Shown: piece by piece, positions 3,777 through 55,371 of the stretch | Layout of the letters: each line of letters opens with the position of its first letter | Position numbering within the stretch: position 1 is the stretch's first letter | DNA from: Selaginella tamariscina | Lineage: Eukaryota; Streptophyta; Lycopodiopsida; Selaginellales; Selaginellaceae | NCBI GenBank assembly: GCA_003024785.1 | Contig: PUQB01000867.1 | Coordinates: forward strand, 1-64,000 | Length of the DNA: 64,000 bases | Reading direction: 5' to 3' | Made by a program: the position numbers and the translations under genes | The notes under the pieces: model-generated | The model's database searches: none | What the model was told of the DNA's origin: nothing | Seen by the model: the letters and a program-made list of their open reading frames with translations, nothing else

Positions 3777-4145
3777 TTAATAAAAGGTAACCCGATTAGT
3801 GGCCTTTCTAACGAAATTCCCTTCAAAAGCCCAGTTCTCCCATCCAGACCACCCAGTGGTTTCAAACTCTCCCATGCCCATGAATGAAATACCCACAATT
3901 TCAGCTCCGTTTATTATCGTACTTTCACATCCCTTAACAGAACTGTGGTCGTAATCAAAACTATAAAACCGATTCCCTTTTCTCCATAGGAACGTATTAC
4001 TAAAGGGTCGACAGTTATTCAATGCTTCACGCATGGCCTCGGACCAATCTATATCATTTATTTCAACCCTAGCATTCACACTGCTAAGAAAATACAGTAA
4101 AACAATTGTGCATGGCAGTGTAAGATACTTGGAGACACTAGCCAT
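3777..4145 (-). CDS. S1: small secreted protein, unknown family
   Basis: Intact single-exon frame of 122 codons. Residues 1-25 form a signal peptide (hydrophobic core TIVLLYFLSS, likely cleavage after SVNA). The mature part has about 97 residues with two cysteines (45 and 73) that could form one disulfide, and a Trp-rich end (TGWSGWENWAF). I do not recognise the family and assign no function. The upstream flank has a TATATAAA box about 65 bp before the ATG, nearly identical to that of S2. It is divergent from X1. Compared with S2, 14 residues differ, all in the mature part, while the signal peptide and 5' flank are almost unchanged. Expression is inferred only from the intact frame and promoter. 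Confidence 0.65.
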   Translation of the reverse strand: MASVSKYLTLPCTIVLLYFLSSVNARVEINDIDWSEAMREALNNCRPFSNTFLWRKGNRFYSFDYDHSSVKGCESTIINGAEIVGISFMGMGEFETTGWSGWENWAFEGNFVRKATNRVTFY

Positions 4146-4387
4146 GTCTAATTAACCAAAACAACTTGAGAACTTACGAGTGTGATTAGCTTATACATTT
4201 CCAGAATTTATATAAAGGAAATAATGTAATAAATCAGCGGGGATTGCTATGTATTAACATTGTCATGTATTCAACTGTTGCACATGTTGTCCCTGTGTGT
4301 TCGTAGCAAATAACTATTTTTGCCATCGGGTTGCACACAGCACGTTTGTTTTCTTGTTGCATACATGATATATTATATTCAGTTTAG
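4146..4387. promoter_or_regulatory. S1 promoter region
   Basis: Shared upstream region of S1. On the minus strand a TATATAAA box lies near 4205-4215, about 65 bp from the ATG. It is essentially identical to the S2 upstream region (11055-11163), so promoter sequence is conserved while the coding part is not. Confidence 0.5.
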
Positions 4388-4643
4388 TTCCAACACTCTC
4401 CCCTAAGTCCGGGCCTACCGTTCAGCTTAGTTCCAACAGTCCCCCCTAAGTCCGGCCCTACCGCATGCCATCCAATCATACCTCTGATACCATGTTGGAA
4501 GACGGATCTCCCAAGACCTCCTACACCAGTGTCAGATGCTCTACCGTTGAGCTACTTACCTAGTTGTGCAGAAATGTTAGAAGTGTATTCATGAGGTAAA
4601 ATACAAAAGTACATTGAGACATCCAAGGGACTTAGTTCTAACA
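4388..4643 (-). mobile_element. TRIM1: miniature LTR-retroelement relic
   Basis: Mirror image of the TRIM at 10633-10945. On the minus strand an LTR (about 4493-4643, TGTTAGAAC...CCAACA) is followed directly by TGGTATCAGAGG, the classic plant primer-binding site for initiator-Met tRNA. A very short internal part, a purine tract (ACTTAGGGGGGA) and the start of another LTR follow. It has no coding capacity, as expected for TRIMs. The LTR contains a tRNA-like module (about 4500-4570). Confidence 0.65.
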
Positions 4644-4668
4644 GATAGTAATATGGGACTAAGAAAAA

Positions 4669-5417
4669 ATGAGCTTCAGGCTTTATAGTTTCGCTTTGGC
4701 ATGGTTTTTTACTTGTAATTTATACAGTAAAAGCCCCCACGTCCTAGCTTTCTAAATGCTATTACAACGGAAGAAGAAGCACTAATGTAAATGATTTATG
4801 TGATTGTTCTGCCCTGGTTATTAACGACATTACAACTGATCGCACTCCACGTCAGTACACTCGTCGAAGAGGGCTCATATCAATGTATGTTAGTGTCACT
4901 CAGTATCACGAGGGAGCTGCTGGAAGATACGATCCAAATGATTCTACGTTTGCAGATTTCTGGGAACAATCTATGGGACACATGTCTTTCATATAATTAT
5001 CCTGGAGGAGAAGTTACTTTGACGATGGTTCTATGCCGGGTATATATGCCACGTAGGTCTTATCTGCCATAATCTGCCCTACCCTACACGTTGTACATAA
5101 CAGTATATACCATGTAGCACATAACAAAGAAACTATATATATATATATATATTATCTGAGCTTATCTACACACATAAATACAATATACAATCATTATATT
5201 TATTATTACATACTTTAGCACGGTGAGAGACACGGTATACCGCCGCAGGCTGCGAGAAACCAGCCGGGAAAGTACACTTATAAGTAGCTTGACGAGCGTT
5301 GAAATTGTACGTCTGAGGGATGAGTTGATCAAGTACCTCAACAACAACAACACGTCTAGTAACCTGATCAAGGACGCAAACTTGCTCATATTAATGAATC
5401 GAGGATGCAAAGAATAA
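4669..5417 (+). pseudogene. X1: secreted-like small protein, disrupted copy
   Basis: Family unknown. A candidate start at 4669 opens a hydrophobic N-terminus (MSFRLYSFALAWFFTC) resembling a signal peptide. The body has conserved pieces: YYNGRRSTNVN, DCSALVIND, TTDRTPRQY, SMYV.VTQYHEG, GRYDPNDST, then VEIVRLRD, LIKYLNNNNTSSN and LLILMNRGCKE. The copy is interrupted: an 8-bp loss near 4968 shifts the frame, and about 260 bp of unrelated AT-rich DNA with a (TA)n tract (about 5038-5297) splits it. How the N-terminus joins the body is unclear (tiny intron or frame damage). It is divergent from S1, with the TRIM between. X copies at 10133-10616 and 55898-56389. Confidence 0.5.
5136..5154. repeat. 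(TA)n microsatellite in the X1 insert
   Basis: Short uninterrupted TA run inside the DNA that splits X1. Absent from X2 and X3. Confidence 0.9.
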
Positions 5418-5538
5418 AACATATAAGAAGAACATATGTATGTATGTATGGTTTGTTTTTGTGACTCCTAGAGAACATAAGATGTCAATTAAGTTTTTCT
5501 TCCACCACAGTAGAAGATGAATAAGATTTTGTACTAAT

Positions 5539-6711
5539 TCAGGCATTCACTATATTCTCATCTTTCCCCAACTTATCTCTTTTCACGTCCCCTCCAGTCC
5601 CATTCTTCTCCCCAACATTCTCTCGAATCCCGTCTTTAGCCATCTTCTTGCTTTTCATTGGCCCTACATTCTCATCTTTGCCCAACTTATCTCTTTTCAC
5701 ATCCCTCCAGTCCCATTCTTCTCCCCAACATTCTCTCGAATCCCGTCCTTAGCCATCTTCTTGCTTTTCTTTGCCCCTATATTTTCATCTTTCCCCAGCT
5801 TATCTCTTTTCACATCCCTGGCTTCTCTGCTTTAGCCGAACTCTTCCCACTCTTAACCATCTCACTCTTCCCCTTCTTCTCTCCAGAATTCTCTCCAAGA
5901 ATCCTCTCCATCAAAACCCGCGCTCTCTCACACTCCTGTTCAACTCTCACAACATTCTCAAACGCCACCTTCCCCACCTCAACGTCTCCACACTCACTAC
6001 ACGCCTCAAGAACTCTCATCCACGTTTTGCCATCAACCCCAGACCGAATATGCTCAGGCATCTTCTCAAAAACCTCTAGTACCTTCTTCTCCTCCTGTAT
6101 CCCGCCAACAAAGACTTAAACAACCTTGCATCTTTCCCACTAATCCCATCAACACCTCCCGAACTTTCTCCATTTTCCCATATCTCACATAAAACTCAAT
6201 CAACGAGCTCGCTACATATACATTGGATACATATCCGCTCTTCAAAAGCTCCTTATGTAGCCTCCTCTCCTTTGTTATAATACTCCTCTTCTTCAGCAAA
6301 GCTTGAGCAAGCTTGAAAAGCTGCAACATAAGTCCTTGCATCAAGGCTAAAACCACTCTTCTTCATAAGCTCAAGAAACTCCAACGCCATCTGGCTTTCC
6401 CCATTCTCCACGTATCCCGATATCATAGAGTTACACGTAACTGTCGTCCTGTTCTCCATTGCATCGAACACTTCAACAGCATTCTCCATGCTACCGCACT
6501 TCGAGTACATGTCTATTAGTGCATTTCCCAAGAACACATCACCGAACAGGTCCTCCCCGATCATCCCATGGATCTCCTTCCCTTTCTCCCTCTTCTTCAT
6601 CTCCCCACATGCTTTCACCACTGCAAGATATGTACGCGAGTTTGGCACATACTCATCCCGCATGCGTGTGAACAGCTCAAGAGCCTTCATATTATTATGT
6701 CACTTAAGTAG

Positions 6712-6747
<36 letters not shown>

Positions 6748-6751
6748 TCTG

Positions 6752-6799
<48 letters not shown>

Positions 6800-7607
6800 A
6801 CACACACACACACAAACGAACCTTATGGCTTTGCCCATTCTGAACGCATCCCGAGGTGAGAGAGTTCCAAGAGACAGTGTCCCGATGAGCCATTCTTTCA
6901 AAGACCTTGATACCATAGTTCATGTGACCACACTTGGCATACACATCTATCAGTGCGTTTGAAACGTAGAGGTTCGACTCGTGGCCTGAGTCCGTCACCT
7001 AGGAGTGTAGATCCTTGGCAAGCTTGAAACACTCTGTCTTAGATGTTGAGCTTGCAAGCTTACTGAGTATTGATACGAATAAGCGCGAGTCGGGCACTAT
7101 ACCGGCTTTCTTCTGCATTTGTTTGAATAAAGAGAGTGCATGGTTGGTTTCCCCAAATTCCACGTATCCCCGAACGAGCGAGTTCCACATTCCCACCGTT
7201 GGATTTGAGAACCTCTCGAAGATCTGATGGGCTTCAGACATGCTCCTCAGCTTGATGTACATGTCTATCAGTGTTTTTAAGATCCTCTCGTCGGATTTGG
7301 CAGGCTGTGGTGGAGCCTCTGTAACTCATCCAGCGTTGTACAGGCTTTAAGTGCATCTCGTGTTTCCAGTGTTTTGTGTGGCTTTCTTTCTGTGTCATAT
7401 CTTGTGTACCTCGCTCCAATCTGGAAGGTAAACTACAAATAATAAGGATCTCTATATACACAGACTAGCAAACAGTAAGTACCTTGGATGATGATGGGTT
7501 GTGGGGAAGCGCTGCCATTTGGATTCTTCACGCATTGTATGGCCTCTTGCTGTGGCTGCATTCCGTCTGAGTGCTTTCCCTGCTAACCCACGAGCCGCTG
7601 CTCTCAT
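5539..7607 (-). pseudogene. P1: PPR protein gene, disrupted copy
   Basis: Pentatricopeptide-repeat protein; the family binds organellar RNA. Exon 1 (7607-7483) encodes an Arg/Ala-rich mitochondrial-type presequence (MRAAARGLAGKALRRNAATA). Intron 1 is 7482-7433. Exon 2 (7432-6822) holds PPR motifs such as LIDMYIKL and [11 protein letters not shown]. Intron 2 (6821-6685) is mostly (CT/GT)n on the plus strand. Exon 3 (6684-5539) has NALIDMYSKCGS, NSMISGYVENGE and MRVLEACSECGD, then a Lys/Glu-rich repeated tail. No E or DYW domain is seen. Damage: exon 1 is one base shorter than in P3, a one-base loss lies near 7293 and a TAG codon near 7000, and the frame slips near 6250. A telo-box lies just upstream. 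Likely a pseudogene unless the indels are assembly errors. Confidence 0.8.
6712..6812. repeat. (CT/GT)n microsatellite in P1 intron 2
   Basis: Compound CT, GT and CA tract filling most of P1 intron 2. Equivalent tracts are at 8818-8898 (P2) and 57605-57705 (P3), with different lengths. They create spurious Ser/Leu and Arg/Glu open frames. Confidence 0.9.
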
Positions 7608-7640
7608 TTTCAGGGTTTAGGGTTTTACCCTATGCTCTGT
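7608..7640 (-). promoter_or_regulatory. Telo-box immediately upstream of P1
   Basis: On the minus strand AAAACCCTAAACCCTGAAA directly precedes the P1 start codon. Telo-boxes are known in plant promoters and 5' leaders of translation- and organelle-related genes. The same element precedes P3 (58501-58513) and the P4 fragment (47467-47484). Confidence 0.6.
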
Positions 7641-7683
7641 TTTAATGCTTATGGTGTTTCATTGTGAGTGTGTGTGTGTGTGT

Positions 7684-7727
<44 letters not shown>

Positions 7728-7870
7728 AATATATACAAAATATTAAGTACATAACATAAAAAATGTGAGTGTGTGTGAGAGAAAAATTGAAACTTTTATA
7801 CCACAATATATAATACAAAATATTAAGTACATAACATAAAAATGTGTTTTTCTCTTTCCTTTTTATTAGC
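7641..7870. other. R1-P1 intergenic spacer with GT/GA microsatellite
   Basis: Spacer between R1 stop and P1 leader. It holds (GT)n-(GA)n at 7666-7727 and two near-identical copies of a stretch ending AAATATTAAGTACATAACAT (about 7735-7764 and 7815-7842), a small local duplication absent from the equivalent spacer at 58540-58637. Confidence 0.6.
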
Positions 7871-8100
7871 TTACTTGAAGTGTTTGGAGATGACACCTTT
7901 CATTTGCTCCTCGTCTATTTGTAATTTACTGTTTTCAAGTGAAAACAAGTCACATAAGAATCACACACACACATAAACACACATACACACACAATCTAAA
8001 CAAACAAACTTACGTCCCAGTTTTCTTGGAGTGTTTCTCAGCAGCTGCCAATCTTCTCTCCCTCTTTGCACGGAAGGCCTCCCTTGCTGCAACTATTCTC
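7871..8100 (-). pseudogene. R1: 3' fragment of the RRM-domain gene
   Basis: Only the last two exons of R remain. The final exon (to the stop at 7871) encodes KLQIDEEQMKGVISKHFK/E. The penultimate exon, starting after a GTAAGT donor near 8012, encodes AREAFRAKRERRLAAAEKH. Homology to R3 stops abruptly at 8100, where the filler and the inverted P2 copy begin, so the gene was cut by the rearrangement. Confidence 0.75.
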
Positions 8101-8160
8101 CATACATAGTTCATACTTCATATCCAACAGCATTCTCCATACTACCTTCAAGTTAATATC
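8101..8160. other. Templated filler at the palindrome centre
   Basis: Joins R1 (minus orientation) to P2 (plus orientation). Positions 8104-8121 match 18 of 18 bases of an R intron (34968-34985). Positions 8125-8146 match 22 of 22 bases of P exon 3 (57369-57390, and the reverse complement of P2 near 9116-9137). Homology to the P exon 1/intron 1 border resumes at about 8161. Patchwork filler of this kind is typical of template switching during break repair. Confidence 0.75.
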
Positions 8161-8819
8161 CAAGGTACTACTGTTTGCTAGTCTGTGTATATAGAGATCC
8201 TTATTATTTGTAGTTTACCTTCCAGATTGGAGCGAGGTACACAAGATATGACACAGAAAGAAAGCCACACAAAACACTGGAAACACGAGATGCACTTAAA
8301 GCCTGTACAACGCTGGATGAGTTACAGAGGCTCCACCACAGCCTGCCAAATCCCGACGAGAGGATCTCAAAAACACTGATAGACATGTACATCAAGCTGA
8401 GGAGCATGTCTGAAGCCCATCAGATCTTCGAGAGGTTCTCAAATCCAACGGTGGGAATGTGGAACTCGCTCGTTCGGGATACGTGGAATTTGGGGAAACC
8501 AACCATGCACTCTCTTTATTCAAACAAATGCAGAAGAAAGCCGGTATAGTGCCCGACTCGCGCTTATTCGTATCAATACTCAGTAGCTCAACATCTAAGA
8601 CAGAGTGTTTCAAGCTTGCCAAGGATCTACACTCCCAGGTATGGACTCAGGCACGAGTCGAACCTCTACGTTTCAAACGCACTGATAGATGTGTATGCCA
8701 AGTGTGGTCACATGAACTATGGTATCAAGGTCTTTGAAAGAATGGCTCATCGGGACACTGTCTCTTGGAACTCTCTCATCTCGGATGCGTTCAGAATGGG
8801 CAAAGCCATAAGGTTCGTT

Positions 8820-8872
<53 letters not shown>

Positions 8873-10064
8873 CACACACACACACAGAGACAGAGAGAGA
8901 CTACTTAAGTGACATAATAATATGAGGGCTCTTGAGCTGTTCACAGGCATGCGGGATGAGGAGTATGTGCCAAACTCACGTACATATCTTGCAGTGGTGA
9001 AAGCATGTGGGGAGATGAAGAAGAGGGAGAAAGGGAAGGAGATCCATGGGATGATCGGGGAGGACCTGTTCGGTGATGTGTTCTTGGGGAATGCACTAAT
9101 ATACATGTACTCGAAGTGCGGTAGTATGGAGAATGCTGTTGAAGTGTTCGATACAATGGAGAACAGGACGACAGTTACGTGGAACTCTATGATATCGGGA
9201 TACGTGGAGAATGGGGAAAGCCAGATGGCGTTGGAGTTTCTTGAGCTTATGAAGAAGAGTGGTTTTAGCCTTGATGCAAGGACTTATGTTGCAGCTTTTC
9301 AAGCTTGCTCAAGCTTTGCTGAAGAAGAGGAGTATTATAACAAAGAAAGGAGGCTACAATAAGGAGCTTTCGAAGAGCGGATATGCATCCAATGTATATG
9401 TAGCAAGCTCGTTGATTGAGTTTTATGGGAGATATGGGAAAATGGAGAAAGCTCGGGAGGTGTTTGATGGGATTAGTGGGAAAGATGCAAGGTTGTTTAA
9501 GTCTTTGTGGATACAGGAGGAGAAGAAGGTACTAGAGGTTTTTGAGAAGATGCCTGAGCATATTCGGTCTGGGGTTGATGGGAAAACGTGGATGAGAGTT
9601 CTTGAGGCGTGTAGTGAGTGTGGAGACGTTGAGGTGGGGAAGGTGGCGTTTGAGAATGTTGTGAGAGTTGAACAGGAGTGTGAGAGAGCGCGGTTTTGAT
9701 GGAGAGGATTCTTGGAGAGAATTCTGGAGAGAAGAAGGGGAAGAGTGAGATGGTTAAGAGTGGGAAGAGTTCGGCTAAAGCAGAGAAGCCAGGGGATGTG
9801 AAAAGAGATAAGCTGGGGAAAGATGAGAATATAGGGGCAAAGAAAAGCACGAAGATGGCTAAAGATGAGAAGGACGGGATTCGAGAGAATGTTGGGGAGA
9901 AGAATGGGACTGGAGGGGATGTGAAAAGAGATAAGTTGGGGAAAGATGAGAATGTAGGGGCAAAGAAAAGCAAGAAGATGGCTAAAGACGGGATTCGAGA
10001 GAATGTTGGGGAGAAGAATGGGAGTGGAGGGGACGTGAAAAAAGATGAGTTGGGGAAAGCTTAA
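8161..10064 (+). pseudogene. P2: PPR protein gene copy lacking exon 1
   Basis: Inverted copy of P. Homology begins at the exon 1/intron 1 junction, so the presequence exon is missing. Exon 2 (8214 to about 8813) holds the PPR run from LKACTTLDEL to [16 protein letters not shown]. Intron 2 is a (GT)n-(GA)n tract ending near 8925. Exon 3 (about 8926-10064) carries PPR motifs NALIYMYSKCGS and NSMISGYVENGE and the acidic/basic tail. The tail has two full repeats of about 38-41 residues (GDVKRDKLGKDEN..GAKKSK.MAKD) and a partial third ending KDELGKA. Frame breaks occur near 8475, 8595, 8640 and 9350. Without promoter or exon 1 it is a pseudogene. Confidence 0.8.
9796..10062 (+). repeat. Tandem repeat in the P2 C-terminal tail
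   Basis: Two copies of a 114-123 bp unit and a third partial copy, encoding Lys/Asp/Glu-rich sequence. Similar arrays are at 5545-5815 (P1) and 56430-56705 (P3), with different unit numbers and lengths. Confidence 0.85.
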
Positions 10065-10132
10065 TTGACATCTTATGTGTCACCACAAGACTTAAAAACA
10101 AACCATACATACATATGTTCTTCTTATATGTT

Positions 10133-10616
10133 TTATTCTTTGCATCCTCGATTCATTAATATGAGCAAGTTTGCGTCCTTGATCAGGTTACTAGACGTGT
10201 TGTTGTTGTTGAGGTACTTGATCAACCCATCCCTCAGACGTACAATTTCAACGCGCATAGAACCATCGTCAAAGGTAACTTCTCCTCCAGGATAATTATA
10301 TGAAAGACATGTGTCCCATAGATTGTTGACTGCGTCCCAGAAATCTGCAAACGTAGAATCATTTGGATCGTATCTTCCACCAGCTCCCTCGTGATACTGA
10401 GTGATATGTACCCTCTTCGACGAGTGTACTGACGTGGAGTGCGATCAGTTGTAATGTCGTTAATAACCAGGGCAGAACAATCACATAAATCATTTACATT
10501 AGTGCTTCTTCTTCCGTTGTAATAGCATCTTAGAAAGCTAGGACGTGGGGGCTTTTACTGTATAAATTACAAGTAAAAAACCATGCCAAAGCGAAACTAT
10601 AAAGCCTGAAGCTCAT
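10133..10616 (-). pseudogene. X2: secreted-like small protein, disrupted copy
   Basis: Minus-strand copy of X. The candidate start at 10616 gives the hydrophobic N-terminus MSFRLYSFALAWFFTC. The body is almost colinear with X3, and its 3' half is continuous (SYNYPGGEVTFDDGSMRVEI, VRLRDGLIKYLNNNN, LLILMNRGCKE, stop at 10133). A 14-bp loss near 10407 removes SMYVRV and shifts the frame. Family unknown; its head lies towards S2, as in the other units. Confidence 0.5.
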
Positions 10617-10632
10617 TTTTTCTTAGTCTATC

Positions 10633-10945
10633 TGTTAGAACTAAGCTGAATATACACACAACCTGGGCAGTATGAAATCCCTTGGGATGTCTCAATGTAC
10701 TTTTGTATTTTACCTCATGAATACACTTCTAACATTTCTGCACAACCTAGGTAAGTAGTTCAATGGTAGAGCATCTGACACTGGTGTAGGAGGTCTTGGG
10801 AGATCCGTCTTCCAACATGGTATCAGAGGTATGGTTGGATGGCATGCGGTAGGGCCGGACTTAGGGGGGACTGTTGGAACTAAGCTGAACGGTAGGCCCG
10901 GACTTAGGGGAGAGTGTTGGAACTAAACTGAATATAATATATCAT
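10633..10945 (+). mobile_element. TRIM2: miniature LTR-retroelement relic
   Basis: LTR at 10633-10817 (TGTTAGAACTAAGC...CTTCCAACA), then TGGTATCAGAGG (10818, initiator-Met-type primer-binding site), about 40 bp of internal sequence, purine tract GGACTTAGGGGGGA, and an LTR start TGTTGGAACTAAGC at 10872. A second purine-tract/LTR-start pair follows at about 10900-10930. The right end is uncertain. The short LTR, tiny internal part and absence of coding sequence fit a TRIM. A tRNA-like stretch with an A-box-like TAGTTCAATGGTAGAGC lies near 10750-10815. Confidence 0.7.
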
Positions 10946-11054
10946 GTATGCAACAAGAAAACAAACGTGCTGTGTGCAACCCGATGGCAAAAATAGTTAT
11001 TTGCTACGAACACACAGGGACAACATGTGCAACAGTTGAATACATGACAATGTT

Positions 11055-11163
11055 AATACATAGCAATCCCCGCTGATTTATTACATTATTTCCTTTATAT
11101 AAATTCTGGAATGTATAAGCTAATCACACTCGTAAGTTCTCAAGTTGTTTTGGTTAATTAGAC
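11055..11163 (+). promoter_or_regulatory. S2 promoter with TATA box
   Basis: CCTTTATATAAATTC at about 11091-11105 places a TATA box about 65 bp before the S2 start codon. The region is nearly identical to the S1 upstream region. Confidence 0.6.
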
Positions 11164-11532
11164 ATGGCTAGTGTCTCCAAGTATCTTACACTGCCATGCA
11201 CAATTGTTTTACTGTATTTTCTTAGCAGTGTGAATGCTAGGGTTGAAATAAATGATAGAGATTGGTCCGAGGCCATGCGTGAAGCATTGAATAAGTGTCG
11301 ACCCTTTAGTAATACGTTCATATGGAGAAATGGGAATGAGTTTTATACTTTCATTTACGACCACAGTTCTGCTATGGTTTGTGAAAGTACGATAATAAAC
11401 GGAGCTGAAATTGTGGGTATTTCATTCATGGGCAGGGGAGACTTTGAAACCACTGGGTGGTCTGGATGGGAGAACTGGGCTTTTGAAGGGAATTTCGTTA
11501 GAAAGGCCACTAATTGGGTTTCCTTTTATTAA
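11164..11532 (+). CDS. S2: small secreted protein, unknown family
   Basis: Intact 122-codon frame, collinear with S1. Signal peptide at 1-25, mature chain with Cys45 and Cys73, invariant block STIINGAEIVGISFMG (75-90) and Trp-rich block TGWSGWENWAF (97-107). Against S1, my hand count is 18 base differences in the coding region: 17 change the residue and 1 is silent (codon 63). None fall in the signal peptide. Variable positions cluster at 32, 44, 53-64, 70-72, 91-93 and 118-120. Function unknown; the pattern suggests a diversifying recognition surface, but this is inference. TATA box and AATAAA signals (11568-11600) support a real transcription unit. Confidence 0.65.
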   Translation: MASVSKYLTLPCTIVLLYFLSSVNARVEINDRDWSEAMREALNKCRPFSNTFIWRNGNEFYTFIYDHSSAMVCESTIINGAEIVGISFMGRGDFETTGWSGWENWAFEGNFVRKATNWVSFY

Positions 11533-12000
11533 CTAGGAAATTTAAAATGTAACGGTTGATCATCTTCAAATAAAAATGTTTTATTTATTTATTTATTTGA
11601 ACTCTCCCATGAGTTTTCCATCGTCAAAGAAGTTTGACCAATCGAAAACATCAAATTTCACTATTTATCATTTCTTGACCATCTTTCCAACTTGTAGCAT
11701 AGAACATCGAGTAAATCTTAATAATTATAATTTTCTTTTTATAAGTCAAATAATACGAACGACTTATGAAAACCAGTTTATTAAATCTGAAAAATTAATA
11801 AAATATAAATTAAGAAAAGGAGAAATATAATTGTTTTAAATGAAGCACATCCCTCTCTCGTTAAAGTAAATTATAAAACGTAAAAATGTGATTTTAGGAG
11901 CATATGCACGTTTGCACTAAAGATAAGTTTATGCATTCTTTTGTATATGTACAGTAAAAATATTTAATTATTTTCTAAGGATAAAGTTGACCATAAAATT
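11533..12000. other. AT-rich 3' flank of S2
   Basis: Mirror of 3312-3776. No gene seen; AATAAA-like signals follow the S2 stop codon. Confidence 0.5.
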
Positions 12001-12275
12001 TGTTGACCTAAGATTTTTGTAAGACTAAACATAACATGATGTCACGTCAACCCGTAATAAGGATCGAGCGGAATAAGGAGAATACAAGATATAATAAAAA
12101 TTAAATTTAGAAGGTCGGAATAGGTAAGAATGAATATGTATGTAGCAAGTAACAGCATTGTGGATCATGTTGTAGTATTAAGGAGAGAATAGTATACTAT
12201 AGAATAGAGAAATAAACAAGGAAGACGTACTGAGAGTAAAACGGAACTTATATTATGTCTACACAGGACACATAA
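12001..12275 (-). mobile_element. C2 relic, LTR end (part 1)
   Basis: Start of the minus-strand copy of the copia-like relic C (TGTTGACCTAAG at 12001). GY2 interrupts it at 12276; the rest resumes at 17735. The target duplication CATAA flanks GY2. Confidence 0.6.
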
Positions 12276-12618
12276 TGTAAGCCATGATCTAAGAACATGA
12301 TAAGAACAAGGAGGCTTGATTTTAAAATCAAAGCAAGAGCAAGAAATAAGACAAGAACAAAGAACATAACAAGAATGATCATAAAATGACTGGTGTTAAT
12401 ATTAATTAATTGTACAACAATTAGGTCGAGCTTTTATGCTCACAACTCCAAGAGCTAATCTAGGCATGAGTTAAAAATATACTTCAAGGGCTAATCTAGT
12501 CATGAACAAAAAATAATGTTCCACATCCTGTAGGTATATCATGTCGACATATCATGTAGGCATATCCTATATATCGTATCCGTATCCCGTATTCTGTATT
12601 TTGTATTGGGTCGTGACA
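12276..12618 (-). repeat. GY2 3' LTR
   Basis: Ends at TGTCACGACCCAATAC on the minus strand (12618). Contains GGATATGCCTA-type subrepeats and an ATAAAAGC TATA-like motif. A purine tract (AGGGAGGAGGCGC) precedes it. Confidence 0.85.
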
Positions 12619-12699
12619 GCGCCTCCTCCCTAAGGACGAGTTCCATGAGTCTTGGGACCTAGTTTAGTAATAATGCCGATGAAAGAAGCAACCTTGGAA

Positions 12700-15600
12700 G
12701 AAGTATGGAGTAAATTGGATGCAGGTTCCCAAGTGCGATCATAATAACCTTTCTAATCCACCAAGTATTGAAGTTGGCGACGATGAAGACGAGAATCAAG
12801 GATGGTTGCAACTTCATACTTAGGTTTATCGTCAATGACCACAGGAGGGGGAAGAGAAGAAGCGACCAGGAAGAGAAGAAGGATGATACGGTTCCAACAA
12901 AGAGGTGTGAAACACATGATGAAGTTTCACAGTAGATGGTAGCTCTAATCGGAAAGCTACATGATTGACCTCAGCCGCAATCTTATAAGGGCCCAAACAT
13001 TGAAAATCCAACTTAAAAGAAGGCTTGTTGGTGCGAATATGCCGATGAAGAAGCCACATGAGATCACCAATCTTGTATGCAGGTGCCGGCTGACGATGAG
13101 CATCAGCATGATGCTTGTACCATTCCTGTGCCTGCTAAAGATGAACTTGAAGATCATTTTGTACCTAACGAAGATGCTGGAAATGATCTGTACTGTAGGA
13201 GAGGAAAAGAAGAAGCATGAGGAGCAAAGTCAAAACGTGGATGGTAGCCTAAGAGCGAAGAAAGGTGTCTGGCATATAGATGCGTGAACGGAGTTGTTGT
13301 AAGCAAACTCCACCATAGGAAGAAGGTTCACCAGTTGTCTTGTTGGTAACTGATGAAGCAGCAAAGATACTATTCCAAGGTCTGAATCGTGCGTTCTGAC
13401 TGCCCATTAGTTTGCAGATGATATCCTGAAGAAAGATCCGCTTTAACTTGTAGACTCCGGAGAAGCTCTCGCCAAAATCTGGACATGAATTGTGGGCCTC
13501 GATCAGAAACAATGCTCTAGAAGACCATAATGTAGGAACACTTCACGGATCACCAACTCAGCAGTTGTCTGGCTGTAGTCATTTGTTACATGGTAGGAAA
13601 TGAGCTATTTAGTGAAACGGTCAACCACCACAAGAACTGCATCAAATCCACGAGGAGGAAGATCTGTGAGGAAATCCATAGAAATGGATCTCCAAGGAGC
13701 AGAGGAACAGGAAGAGGACGAAGAAGACCAGAGGGCGCGTGACGAGGCATCTTCGACCTGTTGCAGGTGTCACAACTCCGTACAAACTTTTCCACAAAAC
13801 CTTGCAACCAGGCCACCAATAGTTGCGAGTCACCAACTCAACTGTCTTGGCCACACCAAAATGTCTGTAGCCGGGTATCATGATAATCCTGTACCACACA
13901 AGTCCTGTAAATGCCAACAGGAATGTACATGAGACCTTCCCGGTATAAGAGTCGTCCTGTATGGTAACAACTTGTAGTCTATACAGGAACTGGAGGAAGA
14001 GGAGCTTGCGATGTCAGGACTAATGTGTGAACACATTCTTTGCCAAGTCATCTGTAGTCAATTGCAAACGGATGTCCTGTAAAGTGTTGAATTTGTTGGA
14101 GCCTGATGAACTGTAGTGCTGCAAGCCGAAATCGATCAGGACCCAACAATACTTGCTTTTGAATCATATGCAGGATCGCCCGGGGTCGGTGCAAGGTAAG
14201 AGTGCCTAGACAATGCATCCGCTTTGCCATTCTGAAAACCAGGCATGTAGACGATGACAAAATCAGATAGGAATTCTGCCCACCTAGCCTGTCGTCGACT
14301 GAGAACTCAAGCCGTTTGAAAAAACTCCAGGTTCTTGTGATCCATAAGAACTTGTACATGATGCGCAACACCTTCTAGGAAGTGTCGCCACTCCTTGAAC
14401 GAATCCACAATGGCCTTGAGTTCCTTGTCATGAATCTCGTAATTGATCTTCGCCGAAAGGAACTTACGAGAGTGAAAGGCTATAGGATGGAGTAACTTGT
14501 CTTCTCCAACTTATGATAGGATAGAACCTACTGCAAAGTCCGAAGCATTTGCTTCAACGAAGAAGGGACGAGAAGGATCATGATGTGCTAAAATTAGAGC
14601 TGTCGTGAAGGTGTCCTTGAGTATTGTGAATGCATGTTCTTGCCTTTATGGACCAAGAGAAATCCCCTATGCGCTTGGTGAGTTTCATGAGTGGAAGTAC
14701 ACGCTTGGAGAAATTCTGTATGAATCGCCTGTAGAAGTTTGCAAAGCCAAGGAAACATTGTACATCTCATACAGACTTGGGCCTCTCCCACTCCACGATA
14801 GTCTTCACCTTGTGCATGTCCACGGAAATGCCAGCAGAGAGACAATGTAGCCCAAGAACTCCATAGTATCCCGTCAAAAAACACTTCTCCAACTTCGCAT
14901 ACAAGTATACTCGCGAAGCTTCTGTAAAACTAGTCGTACATGCTTGTCATGTGCCGCTGGTCCTTGGAGAAAATTAAAATGTTATCGAGGTAGATCACCA
15001 CAAACTGGTTCAAGAAGTCGCGAAAGATGTCATTCACCATGTGTTGGAACACGGCTGGGCATTTGTAAGTCGGAAGGCATCACCGTGTACTCGAAATGTC
15101 CATACTTTGTACGAAAGGCAGTCTTTCACTCATCGCCTGGACGAATCTGTACAAGATTATAAGCCCCTCGTAAGTCGATCTTCGTGAACACCTTTGCTCC
15201 TTGTAGCCAATCGAAAAGTTCCAGGATCAATAACAATGGGATGGTGACTTGATTCAAATTACACAACCAAACGCAAACTTCCATCTTTCTTCTTGACAAA
15301 GAAGATAGGTGCTTCTGCAAGGGACTTTGAGTGACAAATGAAGCCGGATGCCAAGTTGTCCTCGATGTACTGGCGAAGAACCTCCAATTCTATAGGTGAT
15401 AGCATAAATCGGTTCGAATGGTGAAGTCTTCCCTTCCGCAAAATCAATAGAACAATCGTAGGACTTGTGAATAAAAAGAACTAGCTTTGTGCTTATCAAA
15501 AATATCCTGAAAGGAGTGATACTTGAATGGCAAGGAAGAAGTAGAAGGAGGAGAAGGGGATTAAAAAACAGGAGAGTCAGATACAGAGAGGTAAAAGAGG

Positions 15601-17299
15601 ACGTAGGAGTTACTTGAAAAGCAAAGAGATGAAAAGGAGCAGAATCAGTGGCAAATTCATGCATAGTAGTGGTAAGAACTCGGAGAGGAGAAGGAGAGAG
15701 TTGAATGAAAAAAAGGAAGGATCTTGGGGGATGAAACAGAAGCAGAGTAATGAAAAGAAGTATGATTGGGAAAAACCTGTGTGGTGTTGACGAGTGTACA
15801 GAATTAGAAGAATCCTGTATAAAAGTCTGTGAATGCACAAGAGTGAGGAGAGCCTGCGAATGTGCTGACGAATTGATAGGAGGTGGATCCCGTTGAGGAG
15901 GAACCTTCAACACTGATACAGATTATAAAAACCCTGTACATGAATCCATGAACTTATAGGAGTGGAGAGAGCCTACGAACTGCATGAGGTGAATCTGTCG
16001 AGGAGGAATCTTCAATATTGATACAAGAACAGGCATGGTCAATCATGTAGTTTGTACTGCCTCAGATACTAAGGTCATATCCTACACGCAGGAAGGTATA
16101 GATTGATCCTGTTGCCGAGAGGAAAACATGAGCGTTTAGACCCAATCTATCTGAGGATTTGCAACCACAAACCATGGCATGCCCAAAACAATGGGAGTCG
16201 TCCGAGTCTTAATCAAGTTGAATGCGCCATGAGTACAAGAGAGAGGTGTGGTAGCATGGGTAACTGCACCAAAAGTAATCAGACGACCATATGCAACCTC
16301 TACAAGAACTGCACGCTTCAACTTTACCACGGAATGCCATGCTGAGTTGCAAAAGTGTCATCCATGAAGCATGCATTTGCACCAATGTCTAACAGGGCAA
16401 ACTCCTTGAGCTCTCGATTATTAAGGCGAATGTGTATAGGAAACTTGAGTGATGGAATGGTATAAGCAACACCAATGGAGCCTGCACCTACGTCCAACTT
16501 CGCGCTCCTAGACGAAGTGGACATTGAAGTTTTTTGACTAAACTTCAGCTTCAACTTCACACGTCTTGAACTTCCTAGTTTTAATAGGACATTTTGCCAC
16601 CTTGTGTCTTTTTCACCACAATACAAGCATAAGTTCTCACCATGATGACGTTGCTTCTCCGCAGTGAAAGTGGGCCACGCTTGTATTTGTCAATCTCCAT
16701 AGGAACTACACTAGAAGGTGTCATAGGAACATGTATTACAACTACAGGATTGGTTTGCAGGAACTGCTGACGGGATTTTTCCTAATGACGCTCGAACAAA
16801 TGGTTGTCGCAGTGAACGGCATGTTGCATGATCTCCACTAAGGTTCGGTACTTATCGGGATCTCCAAAGCAGGCTTCAAAGGCAGCCACAAATCCTTCAA
16901 AGTCTTCCATTAATGGGTTGTCACGCTCCAGCAAAGGGGCAACCCAAGCCCGTGGAGATCCAACTAGTAAGGATGCCAAAAGGCCAACCTTTTGTGCATC
17001 AGTCTAGTAGTGGTGGTTGCATACTGATCAAAAGCCTGATCTGATTTAAGAAACCTTGGAAATCGACGCAATTGCCATTAAACTTCTCTGGCATGCTGAT
17101 CTTTGACTCTGAAGAAGAGTTTGATGAAGAGGAAACCATGGATGCTTGAGAGAGAGCCTGCGCAACAGCCTTGGAGGATGCATCAGCAGCTGCATGCGCC
17201 ATTGGTGGAACCTTACAGATCTGTGACCACTTGGGGCAAAGTGGCCAGCTCATGAAGCAACATTTGGTGCTCGCGTTGAAATTGCTCAAAATTTGCCAT
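12700..17299 (-). pseudogene. GY2 gag-pol region
   Basis: Recognisable parts, in element order: gag from about 17299, CCHC-like knuckle near 16600, aspartic-protease patch (LLDIGANACFMDD) near 16370-16410, RT patches (FFVKKKDGSLRLVV; a YLD-type active-site patch near 14975-15005), RNase H near 14390-14580, integrase zinc finger (CDTCNRSK) near 13750, integrase end (KLHHVFHTSLLEPYHPSS) near 12870-12930, and a chromodomain patch (YEVATILDSRLHRRQLQYLV) near 12760-12820. Fossil; not translated as a whole. Confidence 0.85.
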
Positions 17300-17396
17300 G
17301 ATCCGTGAAAGAAAGGAGGAAAACAAGGGGGAAAAGCTAAAGAGGAAAAAAAAATAACTGGAAATCGGGGAGTTATAAAAGCAATTACTATTAAAC

Positions 17397-17729
17397 TGTC
17401 AAGCCACGACCCAAGAACATGATAAGAAAAGGAGGCTTGACTTCAAAAGCAAGGCAAGAGCAAGGAACAAGATAAGAATGATCATAGAATGACTAGTGTT
17501 GATAGTAACTGATTGTACAACAATTAGGTCGGAGCTTTTATGCTCACAACTCCAAGAGCTAATCTAGGCATGAACTAAAAATATACTCCAAGGGCTAATC
17601 TAGTCATGAGCTAAAAATAATGTCCCATATCATGTAGGCATATCTTATAGGTATATCCTATAGGCATATCCTATAAGCATATCATGTATCCCGTATCCTA
17701 TATCCTGTATCCTGTATCGGGTCGTGACA
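17397..17729 (-). repeat. GY2 5' LTR
   Basis: Pair of 12276-12618. The sequence after it (GTTTAATAGTAATTGC on the minus strand) lacks the usual TGG of a tRNA primer site; instead it resembles the complement of CAGTTACTATCAA inside the LTR. Confidence 0.85.
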
Positions 17730-46185: not shown

Positions 46186-46195
46186 GAGGAGGTGA

Positions 46196-47208: not shown

Positions 47209-47369
47209 TGTGAGAGCTCGGAATATACAAATGTGTATATCCATTAGTTCAAAAACCCTAAATTATATACAAGAGCAAGTGGTCTAAATTGAATCCAATC
47301 CGACGGCTATCAAAATTTATTATGGTAATAATAGTATGTGCACATGCACATGTACACGTGCATCTTACA
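47209..47369 (-). repeat. GY5 5' LTR
   Basis: Pair of 36668-36830; followed by the right target copy GTAT and then the continuing host spacer. Confidence 0.75.
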
Positions 47370-49239: not shown

Positions 49240-49689
49240 TAGGATACGAGGAATACGGGATACAAGATATAAGATACGGGATACAGGATATGCCCACAGG
49301 ATATGCCTACAGGATATGCCTATAAGATATACCTACAAGATATGCCTACAGGATATGCCTACATGATATGGGACATTATTTTTAGCTCATGACTAGATTA
49401 GCCCTTGGAGTATATTTTTAGTTCATGCATAGTTAGTTCTTGGAGTTGTGAGCATAAAAGCTTCGACCTAATTGTTGTACAATCAGTTACTATCAACCAG
49501 TATTTTACGATCATTCTTATCTTATTCCTTGCTCTGCCTTACTTTTGAAGTCAAACCTCCTATTCTTATCATGCTCTTGGTCGTGGCTTGACAGTTTGAT
49601 AGTAATTGCTTTTATAACTCCCCGATTTCCAGTTACTTTTTTTTCCTCTTTAGCTTTTCCCCCTTGTTTTCCTCCTTTCTTTCAGGATC

Positions 49690-52600
49690 ATGGCAAATTT
49701 GAGCAATTTCAACGCGAGCATCATATGTTGCTTCATGAGCTGGCCACTTTGCCCCAAATGGTCACAAATCTGTAAGGTTCCACCAACATGGTGCATGCAG
49801 CTGCTGATGCATCCTCCAAGGTTATTGCGCAGGCTCTTCTCAAGCTTTCGTGGTTTCCTCTTCTTCAGAGCCAAAGATCAGCATGCTAGAGAAGTTTAGT
49901 GGCAATTGCGTTGATTTCTAAGGTCTCTTAAATCAGATCAGGCTTTTGATTAGTATGTAACCACTGCTACTAGACTGATGCACAAGAGGTTGGCCTTTTG
50001 GCATTTACTAGTTGGATCTCCACGGGCTTGGGGTTGCCCCTTTGCTGGAGCGTGACAACCATGATGGAGACTTTGAAGGATTGTGGCTGCCTTGAAGCCT
50101 GCTTTGGAGATCCCGATAAGTACGAACCTTAGCAGAGATCATGCAACATGCTGTCACTACGACAACCATTTGTCGAGCGTCATTAGGAAAAATCCTGTCA
50201 GCAGTTCCTGCAAACCAATCCTATAACTGTAACACATGTTCCTATGACACCTTCTGGAGTAGTTCCTATGGAGATTGACAAATACAAGCGTGGCCCACTT
50301 TCACTGCGAAGAAGCAACATCATTGTGGTGAGAACTTATGCTTGTATTGTGGTGAAACAAGACACAAGGTGGCAAAATGTCCTATTAAAACTAGGAAGTT
50401 CAAGACGTGTGAAGTTCAAGTTGAAGTTTAGTAAAAAAACTTCAATGTCCACTTCATCTAGGAGCCGCGAAGTTAGACGTAGGTGCAGGCTCCATTGGTG
50501 TTGTTTATACCATTCCATCACTCAAGTTTCCTATACACATTCGCCTTAATAATCGAGAGCTCAAGGAGTTTGCCCTGTTAAACACTGGTGCAAATGCATG
50601 CTTCATGAATGACATTTCGGTGATAAGTTGAAGCGTGCAGTTCTTGTAAAGGTTGCATATGGTCGTCTGATTACTTATGGTGTAGTTACCTATGCTACCA
50701 CACCTCTCTCACTCATGGCGCATTCAACTTGATTAAGACTCGGACGACTCCATTGTTTTGAGCATGCCATGGTTTGTGGTTGCAAATCCTCAGATAGATT
50801 GGAGGTCTAAGACGCTCATGTTTTCCTCTCCGGTAGCCAGGATCAATCCTATACCTTCCTGTGTGTAGGATATGACCTTAGTGTCTGAGGCAGTACAAGC
50901 TACATGATTGACCGTGCCTGTTCCTGTATCAGTATTGAAGATTCCTCCTCGACAGGATTCACCTCATGTCAGTTTGTCAACACATCCGCAGGCTCTCTCC
51001 ACTCCTATAAGTTCATGGATTCCTGTACAGGGTTTTTATAATCCTGTATCAGTGTCGAAGGTTTCTCCTTAATAGGATCCACCTCCTATCAGTTCGTCAG
51101 CACATTCGTAGACTCTCCTCACTCCTATGCATTCATAGACTTCTGTACATGATTTTTCTAATTTTGTACACTTATCAACATCCGCATAGGTTTTCCCCAA
51201 TCATGCCTCTTTTCATTACTCTACTTATGTTCCATCCCCAAGATCCTTCCTCTATTTCATTCACAGCTCTCTCCTTCTCCTCTTTGAGTTCTTACCACTA
51301 CTATGCATGAACTTGCTATTGATCCTGCTCCTTTTCATCTCTTTGCTTTTTAAGTAACTCCTACGTCCTCTTTTACCTCTCCTGTATCTGACTCTCCTAT
51401 TTTTTAATCCCCTTCTCCTCTTTCTACTTCCTCCTTACCATTCAAGTATCACTCCTTTCAGGACGTTTTTAATAAGCACAAAGCTGTAGTTCTTTCTATT
51501 CACAAGTCCTATGACCGTTCTATTAATTTTGCGAAAGGGAAGACTCCACCGTTCAGACCGATTTATGCACTGTCACCTACAGAATTGGAGGTTCTTCGCC
51601 AATACATCGAGGACAACTTGGCATCCGGCTTCATTTGTCACTTAAAGTCCCCTGCAAGAGAGGCCTAAGTCTGTATGAGACATACAATGTTTCCTTGGCT
51701 TTGCAAACTTCTACAAGCGATTCATACAGGACTTCTCCAAGCGTGTACTTCCACTCACGAAACTCACCAAGCACACAGGGGATTTCTCTTGGTCCGATAA
51801 GGAAGAACATGCATTCAGAACACTCAAGGACACCTTCACGACAACTCTAATTTTAGCACATTCTGATCCTTCTCGTCCCTTCTTTGTTGAAGCACATTCT
51901 TTGGACTTTGTAGTAAGTTCTATCCTATCACAAGTTGGAGAAGACAAGGTACTCCATCATGTAGCCTTTCACTCTCATAAGTTCCTTTCGGTGGAGATCA
52001 ATTACAAGATTCATGACGAGGAACTCAAGGCCATTGTGGATTTGTTCAAGGAGTGGCGACACTTCTTGAAAGGTATTGCGCATCATGTACAAGTTCTTAT
52101 GGATCACAAAACTTGGAGTTTTTTCAAACGGCTCGAGTTCTCAGTCAACGACAGGCTAGGTGGGCAAAATTTCTATCTGATTTTGTTATCGTCTACATGT
52201 CTGGTTTTCAAAATGGCAAAGCGGATGCATTGTCTAGGCGCTCTTACCTTGCACCGACCCCGGGCGATCTTGCAATAATGTCAAAAGCAAGTATTGTTGG
52301 GTCCTGATCGATTTCGGCTTGCAGCACTACATGTTCATTAGGCTCCAGCACATTCAACACTTTTACAGGACATCCGTTTGCAATTGACTACAGACGACTT
52401 GGCAAAGAATGTGTTCTCACACATTAGTCTTGACATCACAAGCTCCTCTTCCTCCAGTTCCTGTACAGACTACAAGTTTTCACCATGCAAGACGGACTCT
52501 TATACCAGGAAGGTCTCATGTACATTCCTGTTGGCATTTACAGGACTTGTGTGGTACAGGATTATCATGATACCCCGGGTACATGACATTTTGGTGTGGC

Positions 52601-53830
52601 CAAGACAGTTGAGTTGGTGACTCGCAACTATTGGTGGCCTAGGTTGCAAGGTTTTGTGGAAAAGTTTGTACGGAGTTGTGACACCTGCAACAGGTCGAAG
52701 ATGCCTTGTGACGCGCCCTTTAGTCTTCTTCGTCCTCTTCCTGTTTTCTCTGCTCATTGGAGATCCATTTCTATGAATTTTCTCACAAATCTTCCTCCTC
52801 GTGGATTTGATGTAGTTCTTGTGGTGGTTGACCGTTTCACTAAATAGGCTCATTTCCTACCATGTAACAAGATGACTACAGGCTAGACAACTGTTGAGTT
52901 GGTGATCAGTGAAGTGTTCCTACATTATGGTCTTCTTGAGAGCATTGTTTTTGATCGAGGCCCACAATTTTGTCTAGATTTTGGCGAGAGCTTCTCCAGA
53001 GTCTACAAGTTAAAGCGAATCTTTCTTCAGGATATCATCTACAAACTGATGGGCAATTAGAATGCACGATTCAGACCTTGGAGCAGTATCTTCGCTGCTT
53101 CATCAGTTACCAACAGGACAACTGGCTGAACCTTCTTCCTATGGTGGAGTTTGCTTACAATAGCTCCGTTCATGCATCTACATGCCAGACACCTTTCTTC
53201 GCTCTTACAGGCTACCATCCACGTTTTCACTTTGCTCCTCATGCTTCTTCTTCTTTCGCTCCTGTAGTACAGGATTTTCTCCAACATCTTCGTCAGGTAC
53301 AAGATGATCTTCGAGTTCATCTTTAGCAGGCACAAGAATGGTACAAGCATCATGCTGATACTCATTGTCAGCCGGCGCCTGCATACAAGATTGGTGATCT
53401 CATGTGGCTTCTTCATTGGCATATTCGCACCAACAGGCTTTCTTTTAAGTTGGATTTTCAACGTTTAGGCCCTTATAAGATTGCGACTGAGGTCAATCCT
53501 ATAGCTTTCCGATTAGAGCTACCATTTACTATGAAACTTCATCATGTGTTTCACACCTCTTTGTTGGAACCGTATCATCCTTCTTCTCTTCCTAGTCGTG
53601 CTTCTTCTCTTCCCCCTCCTGTGGTCATTGACGATAAACCTGAGTATGAAGTTGCAGCCATTCTTGATTCTCGTCTTCATCGTCACCAACTTCAATACTT
53701 GGTAAATTAAAAAGGTTATTCTTATCGATCGCACTTGGGAACCTGCATTCAATTTACTCCATGCTTCTTCCAAGGTTGCTGCCTTTCATTGGCGTTATTA
53801 TCCTGCTAAACTAGGTCCTAGGACTCGTGA
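49690..53830 (+). pseudogene. GY3 gag-pol region
   Basis: gag from 49690, protease patch near 50565-50610, RT start patch near 51540-51660, RNase H ([20 protein letters not shown], about 51980-52040), integrase (52590-53330), integrase end KLHHVFHTSLLEPYHPSSLP (about 53535-53595), chromodomain (YEVAAILDSRLHRHQLQYLV, from about 53646). Fossil. Confidence 0.8.
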
Positions 53831-53854
53831 AACTCATCCTTAGGGAGGAGGCGC

Positions 53855-54200
53855 TGTCACGACCCAATACAGAATACAGGATACGGGATACGGGATACGG
53901 GATACAGGATATGCCCATAGGATATGCCTACATGATACCTATAGGATATGGGACATTATTTTTAATTCATGACTAGATTAGCCCTTGGAATATATTTTTA
54001 GCTCATGCCTAGATTAGCTCTTGGAGTTGTGAGCATAAAAGCTCCGACCTAATTGTTGTACAATTAATTAATATCAACACGAGTCATTTTATGATATTAT
54101 TCTTGTTATATTCTTTGTTCTTGTCTTATTCTTTGCTCTTGCATTGATTTTAAAATCAAAATTCCTTATTCTTATCATGTTCTTAGGTCATGGCTTGACA
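53855..54200 (+). repeat. GY3 3' LTR
   Basis: TGTCACGACCCAATAC to GGCTTGACA, preceded by AGGGAGGAGGCGC. Confidence 0.9.
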
Positions 54201-54474
54201 TTTGTGCCATGTGTAGACATAATATAAGTTCATTTTACTCTCAGTACATCTTCCTTGCTTATTTCTCTGTTTTATAGTATATTATTCTCTCCTTAATACT
54301 GCAACATGATCCGCAATGTTGTTACTTGCTACATACATATCCATTTTTACCTTGTTCCGACCTTCTAAAGTTTAATTTTTATTATATCCTATATTCTTCT
54401 TATTCCGCTTGATCCTTATTACGGGTTGACAGTGAACTGTTATGTTTTAGTATTAGAAAAATCTTAGGTCAACA
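54201..54474 (+). mobile_element. C3 relic, LTR end
   Basis: Remainder of C3 after GY3 (GCCATGTGTAGACATAATAT to AGGTCAACA), homologous to 3030-3311. Confidence 0.65.
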
Positions 54475-55019
54475 AAATTGATGGTCAACTTTATCCTTAG
54501 AAAATAATTAAATATTTTACTGTACATATACAAAAGAATGCATAAACTTATCTTTAGTGTGTTATAGCTCTGAAACGTGCATATGCTCCTAAAATCACAT
54601 TTTTACGTTTTATATTTTACTTTAACGAGAGAGGGATGTGCTTCTTTTAAAACAATTATATTTTTCCTTTTTTTCATTTATATTTTATTAATTTTTCAGA
54701 TTTAATAAACTGGTTTTCATAAGTCGTTTGTATTATTTGACTTATAAAAAGAAAATTATACTTATTAAGATGTGTTATGCCACAAGTTCGTATTATTTGA
54801 CTTATAAAAAGAAAATTATACTTATTAAGATGTGTTATGCCACAAGTTCAAAATATGGTAAAAATGATAAATAGTGAAAACTTATGTTCGATTGGTCAAA
54901 CTTCTTTGACGATGGAAAATTCATGGGAGAGTTCAAATAAATAAATAAATAAAATATTCTTATTTGAAGATAAAAAAATAAATGATCAACCGTTACATTT
55001 TAACTTTCCTAGTTAATTA
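54475..55019. other. AT-rich 3' flank of S3 with 60-bp tandem duplication
   Basis: Matches 3312-3776. Contains an exact direct duplication of a 60-bp unit (about 54731-54790 and 54791-54850) absent from the other two copies. No gene seen. Confidence 0.8.
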
Positions 55020-55371
55020 AAGGAAACCCAATTAGTGGCCTTTCTATTGTAATTCCCTTCAAAAGCCCAGTTCTGCCATCCATACCACCCAGTGGTTACA
55101 AACTCTCCCTGCCCATGAATGAAATACCCACAATTTCAGCTCCGTTTATTATCGTACTTTTACATTCCTTAGCAACACTGTGGTCGTAATCGAAAGTATC
55201 AAACTCATTCCCATCTCTCCATATGAACGTATTACCATAGGTTCGACACTTATCCAATGCTTCACGCATGGCCTCGGACCAATCTCTATCATTTATTTCA
55301 ACCCTAGCATTCACACTGCTAAGAAAATACAGTAAAACAATTGTGCATAGATACTTGGAGACACTAGCCAT
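55020..55371 (-). pseudogene. S3: small secreted protein, disrupted copy
   Basis: Third S copy. The signal peptide lacks three residues (TLP) compared with S1/S2. The mature region keeps Cys45 and Cys73 equivalents and the block STIINGAEIVGISFMG, then the frame shifts near 55105 and stops at 55096; the Trp-rich end is still recognisable out of frame down to about 55020. In hand alignment with S2, about 20 base differences all change the residue and none is silent, e.g. P47T, F48Y, S49G, I64D, V72E, E74K. The frame may be broken or a one-base assembly error. Confidence 0.6.

What the first reader, a model, noticed from the sequence alone, without database searches (positions are those of the whole stretch)
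3777..55371. S family: secreted protein with almost only amino-acid-changing differences between copies
Seen: S1 (3777-4145) and S2 (11164-11532) are intact, with identical signal-peptide codons and near-identical promoters and 3' flanks. In the mature part my hand count is 17 replacing and 1 silent base change. S2 versus S3 (55020-55371) gives about 20 replacing and 0 silent. Neutral drift should give roughly 3 to 1. Changes cluster at residues 43-74, between invariant blocks. Inference: diversifying selection, or gene conversion from diverged paralogues, as in secreted recognition or defence proteins. The family is not one I know.
Basis: partly seen in the sequence, partly recalled or inferred. 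Interest (0 to 1): 0.88.

Follow-up and report, generated by a model that had tools for sequence, protein, structure and literature searches.

The report
Fast-evolving secreted plant protein family
Several copies of a small, probably secreted plant protein keep the same export signal and core but differ by changes that mostly alter the protein, which points to selection for variety, as in proteins that meet a changing partner such as a microbe.

Summary
The finding holds and grows stronger with more copies. S1 and S2 are intact 122-codon genes. S3 lacks one base in a G run, but an intact counterpart lies on contig C778. Mature-part counts are 16 replacing to 2 silent (S1/S2) and 21.5 to 0.5 (S2/S3). 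S1 against S2 alone is not significant (omega 1.65, p 0.50); the three copies together are (omega 5.6, p 0.016). The window's 300.7-Mb genome gave 54 matches, fragments included. On 10 distinct copies, site models favour positive selection (M1a/M2a 2dlnL 30.3, p 2.7e-7; omega 6.6 at 14% of codons). On 7 of them, 0 of 100 null simulations reached the observed value. Five same-type pairs show 0 differences in 1,419 compared bases. Gene conversion is also supported: S1 and S2 are near-identical upstream but differ by 5-14% downstream, and S4 is a mosaic. No relative was found in the protein, structure, viral or prokaryote collections searched, which hold little plant sequence. Defence or recognition is the likeliest role and is untested.

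The parts
3777..4145 (-). S1: intact 122-aa gene for a probably secreted protein
11164..11532 (+). S2: intact 122-aa gene for a probably secreted protein
55013..55371 (-). S3: same gene with a 9-base in-frame deletion in the signal peptide and a 1-base deletion in a G run at codon 91; the end at 55013 is my reading of the stop codon in step with the intact counterpart on contig C778 at 94226-94588
11299..11379 (+). S2 codons 46-72, variable loop between the two invariant mature cysteines (45, 73)
3930..4010 (-). S1 codons 46-72, variable loop
55165..55245 (-). S3 codons 46-72, variable loop
11096..11103 (+). TATA-like box of S2 (-68)
4207..4214 (-). TATA-like box of S1 (-69)
55433..55440 (-). 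TATA-like box of S3 (-69)
3018..8100 (-). S1 arm of an inverted duplication (S1 plus PPR-gene region)
8158..12274 (+). S2 arm of the inverted duplication
54203..58613 (-). S3 copy of the same unit
12276..17729 (+). LTR retrotransposon-like insertion (about 81% identical direct terminal repeats, TG...CA ends, CATAA duplicated) downstream of S2; matching left junction downstream of S3; site empty downstream of S1

Best explanation
S is a multicopy family, known so far from this one genome, of small secreted proteins: a signal peptide of about 25 residues and a 97-residue mature part. A conserved core rich in glycine and tryptophan carries two invariant cysteines, 45 and 73, which probably form one disulfide. 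Positions beside the cysteines, in the loop between them and at the C-terminus are changed by recurrent positive selection. Duplication makes the copies, gene conversion homogenises promoter and signal peptide and shuffles mature segments, and selection favours amino-acid novelty between types while keeping each type unchanged. Shown: ORF structure, copies, a codon class with omega above 1. Strongly indicated: conversion. Inferred: secretion, the disulfide, and that the host is a plant. Inferred, and most likely in my view: the variable face binds a fast-changing partner outside the cell, more probably a microbial or herbivore molecule (defence) than a mating partner.
For: Site models on 10 distinct copies: M1a/M2a p 2.7e-7, M8a/M8 p 3.7e-8, omega 6.6 at 14% of codons; significant also on subsets of 7 and of 4 copies. 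0 of 100 null simulations reach the observed value on the 7-copy set. The S1-S2 reading frame has 0 gaps where 4.8 are expected (p 0.008), so the genes look constrained. Five same-type pairs: 0 of 1,419 compared bases differ, although the surrounding sequence of those copies differs by about 0.5-2.5% substitutions. Controls: ORF pieces of the PPR region in the same units show neutral-like silent/replacing ratios in 8 of 8 comparisons (P 0.57-0.96). In the mature part of S1-S2, 13 of 18 changes are transversions, against 20 of 57 in 750 bp of 3' flank (p 0.007). Both cysteines and the G/W core are kept in 8 of 8 aligned members, the other seven 37-91% identical to S2. Five of 11 sites with posterior above 0.5 lie within 3 residues of a cysteine (p 0.004). 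Changes show no bias toward G/C.
Against: S1 against S2 alone: omega 1.65, p 0.50. Replacing divergence exceeds the 3' flank in only 12 of 21 pairs. The transversion excess of S2-S3 is not significant against the first 500 bp of 3' flank (p 0.56). Within the C736/C869/C659_90 subgroup omega is below 1 in 5 of 6 pairs. Recombination among copies can inflate site-model tests. MFGK copies elsewhere in the window also show 6 replacing, 0 silent (P 0.19). No expression or binding data; both predicted structures are poor (pLDDT 39.5 and 38.2).
Confidence: 0.6

Rival explanations
1. Mosaic by gene conversion alone: copies imported segments from old diverged paralogues, and the excess of replacing changes is chance plus low silent counts.
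For: S1-S2 divergence steps from 0-3.6% per 250 bp upstream to 5-14% downstream, near the signal/mature junction; S4 is S1-like with S2 codons at 91 and 93; S1-S2 alone not significant.
Confidence: 0.12
2. The proteins act in mating or fertilisation recognition rather than defence; selection is for partner specificity.
For: Reproductive proteins often show such selection (general knowledge); poppy PrsS is a small, polymorphic secreted protein (PMC13033167, passages seen).
Against: Same-type copies on different contigs, of which the C1289/C659 pairs are probably two haplotypes, are identical in the mature part (0 of 1,419 bases over five pairs), unlike polymorphic mating determinants; no match to a reproductive family in Pfam.
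Confidence: 0.22
3. Relaxed or absent constraint: the copies are pseudogenes drifting neutrally.
For: Several copies have frameshifts or stops.
Against: No gaps in the S1-S2 frame against 4.8 expected; same-type identity; drift gives omega 1, not 5.6; several single-base gaps sit in copies otherwise identical to intact ones, as assembly errors would.
Confidence: 0.05

Closest known systems
Conotoxin-type gene families (conserved signal peptide, fast mature part)
   Same: Signal peptide conserved while the mature part is extremely diverse (PMC3862624, abstract start and passages seen).
   Different: Conotoxin genes have 2-3 exons and encode short cysteine-rich venom peptides (recalled); S is a 97-residue, two-cysteine protein read as one ORF, and it has no match in the libraries searched.
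Plant S-protein homologues (SPH, Pfam PF05938) including poppy PrsS
   Same: Small secreted plant protein of similar size, polymorphic; both perhaps beta-rich.
   Different: PrsS has four conserved cysteines (PMC13033167, passages), S has two; PF05938 is not among the families matched up to E 10. No PDB chain matches at E 0.001 (the first two were run to E 10 and gave only 1rdu_A); whether the solved SPH15 is in that copy was not checked.
Plant cysteine-rich proteins (CRPs: defensins, LUREs, SCR)
   Same: Secreted, small, multicopy; fast evolution is general knowledge.
   Different: CRPs typically have at least four conserved cysteines (PMC13033167, passages); S has two in the mature part.
Potato type II proteinase inhibitors
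   Same: Duplicated plant defence proteins with molecular adaptation (PMC2259423, title and abstract start in a search listing only).
   Different: No Pfam match that would place S there.

Membership tests
SPH / PF05938 | Match to the Pfam profile | tested here: not met
   8 members scanned up to E 10: four families listed, none PF05938 (HMMER's filters drop most matches above about 0.1). The search of the genome with this profile did not complete.
SPH / PF05938 | Four conserved cysteines | tested here: not met
   Two cysteines in the mature part of S1 and S2, both invariant in 8 of 8 aligned members; the definition is from PMC13033167 (passages).
SPH / PF05938 | Eight- or nine-strand beta-sandwich | tested here: inconclusive
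   Predicted models have pLDDT 39.5 and 38.2.
[quoted passage not shown]
   definition PMC13033167 (passages).
Secreted protein under diversifying selection | Class of codons with omega above 1 | tested here: met
Secreted protein under diversifying selection | Signal peptide | tested here: inconclusive
   Hydrophobic N-terminus ending VNA-R read from the sequence; no signal-peptide predictor was available.
Secreted protein under diversifying selection | Expression and an external partner | not testable with these tools
   No RNA or binding data.

The most novel reading that the evidence does not exclude
S is a new structural class of plant recognition protein: a two-cysteine, G/W-core fold carrying a hypervariable disulfide loop, diversified by palindrome-driven gene conversion and positive selection into a set of fixed variants, in a plant lineage where such proteins are hardly known.
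Probability: 0.3. Interest if true: 0.8.

Novelty: new member of a known kind. Interest (0 to 1): 0.58.

Why it matters
Statistically firm positive selection on a family without any match in the libraries searched, with candidate selected residues named, gives a short list of testable contact sites. If the partner is microbial, this is an uncharacterised defence family. The inverted-repeat arrangement also lets one study gene conversion and selection acting on the same 369 bases.

Tried and rejected
Homologues: one search of 5.8 billion proteins with S2 and one with the three-copy alignment found none; viral contigs scanned twice and GTDB genomes twice, no relative. NCBIfam (3 proteins) and PHROGs (2 proteins): none. 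Pfam gave a weak DUF3775 hit (best E 0.0077, 16.6 bits, cut-off 27) in 5 of 8 members, below cut-off and rejected. PDB sequence searches gave only weak hits (1rdu_A E 0.066 and 0.15; 5i8l_A E 0.03 and two weaker) and none with the eight-member profile or the C498 member. Two structure predictions were too poor to use; a Foldseek search with the first gave 0 matches at E 0.001. Biased gene conversion toward G/C: 8 W>S and 9 S>W changes. Charge-changing replacements are not significantly enriched (P 0.09-0.16). Literature: six answered searches, one of them with no paper; nothing on this family seen in the listings.

Rows dropped: of 20 copies laid out, 16 were used, 7 or 4. c778_33 (five single-base gaps) and c701_82 (stops and gaps) were left out, as were c1289_62 and c659_223 (a stop and loss of most of the variable block). 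Six codons of c659_177 were masked by hand where the alignment slipped, and the alignment of c1289_20 was replaced by its own gapless reading. L024 and the C498 copies were not in the codon tests. The 13 regions fetched (weaker matches) were not analysed.

Full report
What is there. S1 (3777-4145, -) and S2 (11164-11532, +) are intact 122-codon ORFs; S3 (55013-55371, -) reads the same kind of protein until a missing G in a G run at codon 91. tblastn finds only these three in the window at E below 1. Each has a TATATA box at -68/-69. S1 and S2 lie on the two arms of an inverted duplication (3018-8100 and 8158-12274) with copies of a PPR-gene region; S3 lies in a third copy (54203-58613). That the host is a plant is inferred from the PPR repeats and the genome size.

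Checking the counts. Silent/replacing steps in the mature part are 2/16 (S1-S2), 0.5/21.5 (S2-S3) and 1/27 (S1-S3). A codon model on the three gives omega 5.6 (p 0.016; 1 of 100 simulated nulls as extreme with omega above 1). It gives S1-S2 alone 1.65 (p 0.50), S2-S3 p 0.004 and S1-S3 p 0.009; codons 26-90 alone, before S3's gap, give p 0.08. With kappa estimated or fixed at 1, 2 or 4, the three-copy omega is 5.1-8.9 and p 0.0008-0.019. ORF pieces of the PPR region in the same units show ordinary ratios (8 of 8 comparisons, P 0.57-0.96); the MFGK pair shows 6 replacing and 0 silent (P 0.19).

Flanks. For S1-S2 the upstream side differs by 0-3.6% per 250 bp, the signal peptide by 0/75, the mature part by 18/294 (6.1%) and the 3' side by 5-14% per 250 bp, leaving out a 9-bp end bin. 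Against the 3' flank, replacing divergence is higher in 12 of 21 pairs and silent divergence lower in 15 of 21. The transversion excess in the mature part is significant against 750 bp of 3' flank for S1-S2 (p 0.007) and S1-S3 (p 0.038) and against 3.4 kb for S2-S3 (p 1.3e-5), but not for S2-S3 against the first 500 bp (p 0.56).

Conversion. An insertion with direct terminal repeats (12276-17729, TG...CA ends, CATAA duplicated), as in LTR retrotransposons, sits downstream of S2. S3 has the matching left junction (its right end differs) and S1 has the empty site. S2 and S3 therefore share a derived insertion, yet S1 and S2 are nearly identical upstream, which suggests later conversion between the arms. 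S4 matches S1 at 12 of the 15 codons that differ between S1 and S2, and S2 at 70, 91 and 93. The related copy on C778 already has the S2-like codon at 70, so the clear transfer is 91-93.

The genome. After many unanswered attempts the search of the window's own genome (300,702,823 bases, 1,391 contigs) returned 54 matches. A repeat of the window's first 1.26 kb at 62665-63877 had predicted a further S near 66.8 kb; one lies at 66659-67006. Contig C778 carries at least four copies of the window's types. Three of them follow the order and orientation of S1-S2-S3, but the one at 44.7 kb shares a 33-base signal-peptide duplication with S4, so it is unclear which copies correspond and whether C778 is the other haplotype or a further array. 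C659 mirrors C1289 (95.2% identity over 5.3 kb) and is probably its other haplotype. The 54 matches therefore overstate the number of loci and include fragments. Several gaps are single bases in copies otherwise identical to intact ones, which fits assembly error; I cannot prove that without reads.

Selection over the family. Ten distinct copies: M0 omega 1.80 (p 0.024); M1a/M2a 2dlnL 30.3, p 2.7e-7; M8a/M8 p 3.7e-8; class omega 6.6 at 14%. Seven copies: M0 p 0.08, M1a/M2a p 4.3e-6. Four copies: M0 p 0.16, M1a/M2a p 6.7e-8. Null simulation under M1a on the seven, with tree branch lengths as first estimated: 0 of 100 reach the observed value, maximum 7.2 against 28.2. The models are my own implementation, not codeml, and do not allow for recombination. 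On the ten copies, sites with posterior above 0.5 are 46, 47, 59, 64, 71, 72, 74, 93, 112, 120 and 122; 5 of 11 lie within 3 residues of cysteine 45 or 73 (p 0.004), while enrichment inside the loop as a whole is p 0.07. Selection is not everywhere: in the C736/C869/C659_90 subgroup 5 of 6 pairs have omega below 1.

Within types. Five same-type pairs show 0 differences in 1,419 compared bases, codons with gaps and six hand-masked codons left out, while the aligned surroundings of the same copies differ by about 0.5-2.5% substitutions. My reading: types are kept as they are, and differences between types are adaptive.

What it is. Eight aligned members, down to 37% identity with S2, keep both cysteines and a core around W54, N58, YD66, NG80 and GW.GW.NWA. 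The C498 group is a more distant branch; a search with one of its members gave 29 matches, many of them those. Nothing matches above cut-off in Pfam, NCBIfam or PHROGs (S1-S3 and S1-S2 only), or at E 0.001 in PDB. Nothing was found in 5.8 billion proteins (S2 and the three-copy profile only) or in viral and prokaryote contigs. A PPR query of the protein collection found a single protein, so it holds little plant sequence, and relatives in other plants remain possible. The family fails the cysteine definition of PrsS/SPH and CRP proteins (PMC13033167, passages). It works like conotoxin-type families in keeping the signal and varying the mature part (PMC3862624, passages), but is not one.

Verdict. 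A real, rapidly diversifying and probably secreted family, with positive selection shown by site models and gene conversion strongly indicated. Defence or recognition is the likeliest role and is untested.

Noticed in passing
window 12276-17729 and 49273-54203: LTR retrotransposon-like insertion shared at its left junction by the S2 and S3 units and absent at the S1 unit, a marker for the duplication order.
   Followed up: partly
window 5562-7767, 8158-10059, 56431-58613: Three copies of a PPR-gene region whose ORF is split between frames, with neutral-like change.
   Followed up: partly
window 35515-36093 (+) and 59316-59867 (-): Two copies of an acidic protein ORF (MFGKLEKKV...) with 6 replacing and 0 silent differences, no Pfam match.
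   Followed up: no
upstream of each S, about 4420-4680, 10620-10900, 55640-55900: tRNA-like stretch resembling a tRNA-derived SINE head (motif recalled, not from a tool; ARAGORN reports no tRNA gene).
   Followed up: no
L025, L026, L027, L028 (contig C498): A divergent branch of the family, two of whose copies are 41-43% identical to S2 over about 80 residues, possibly with a separate signal-peptide exon upstream.
   Followed up: partly
L009:2660-3058 (-) and L013:1650-2050 (-): In-frame 33-base duplication in the signal peptide (LTLPCTIVLLY repeated) in two S1-like copies.
   Followed up: no
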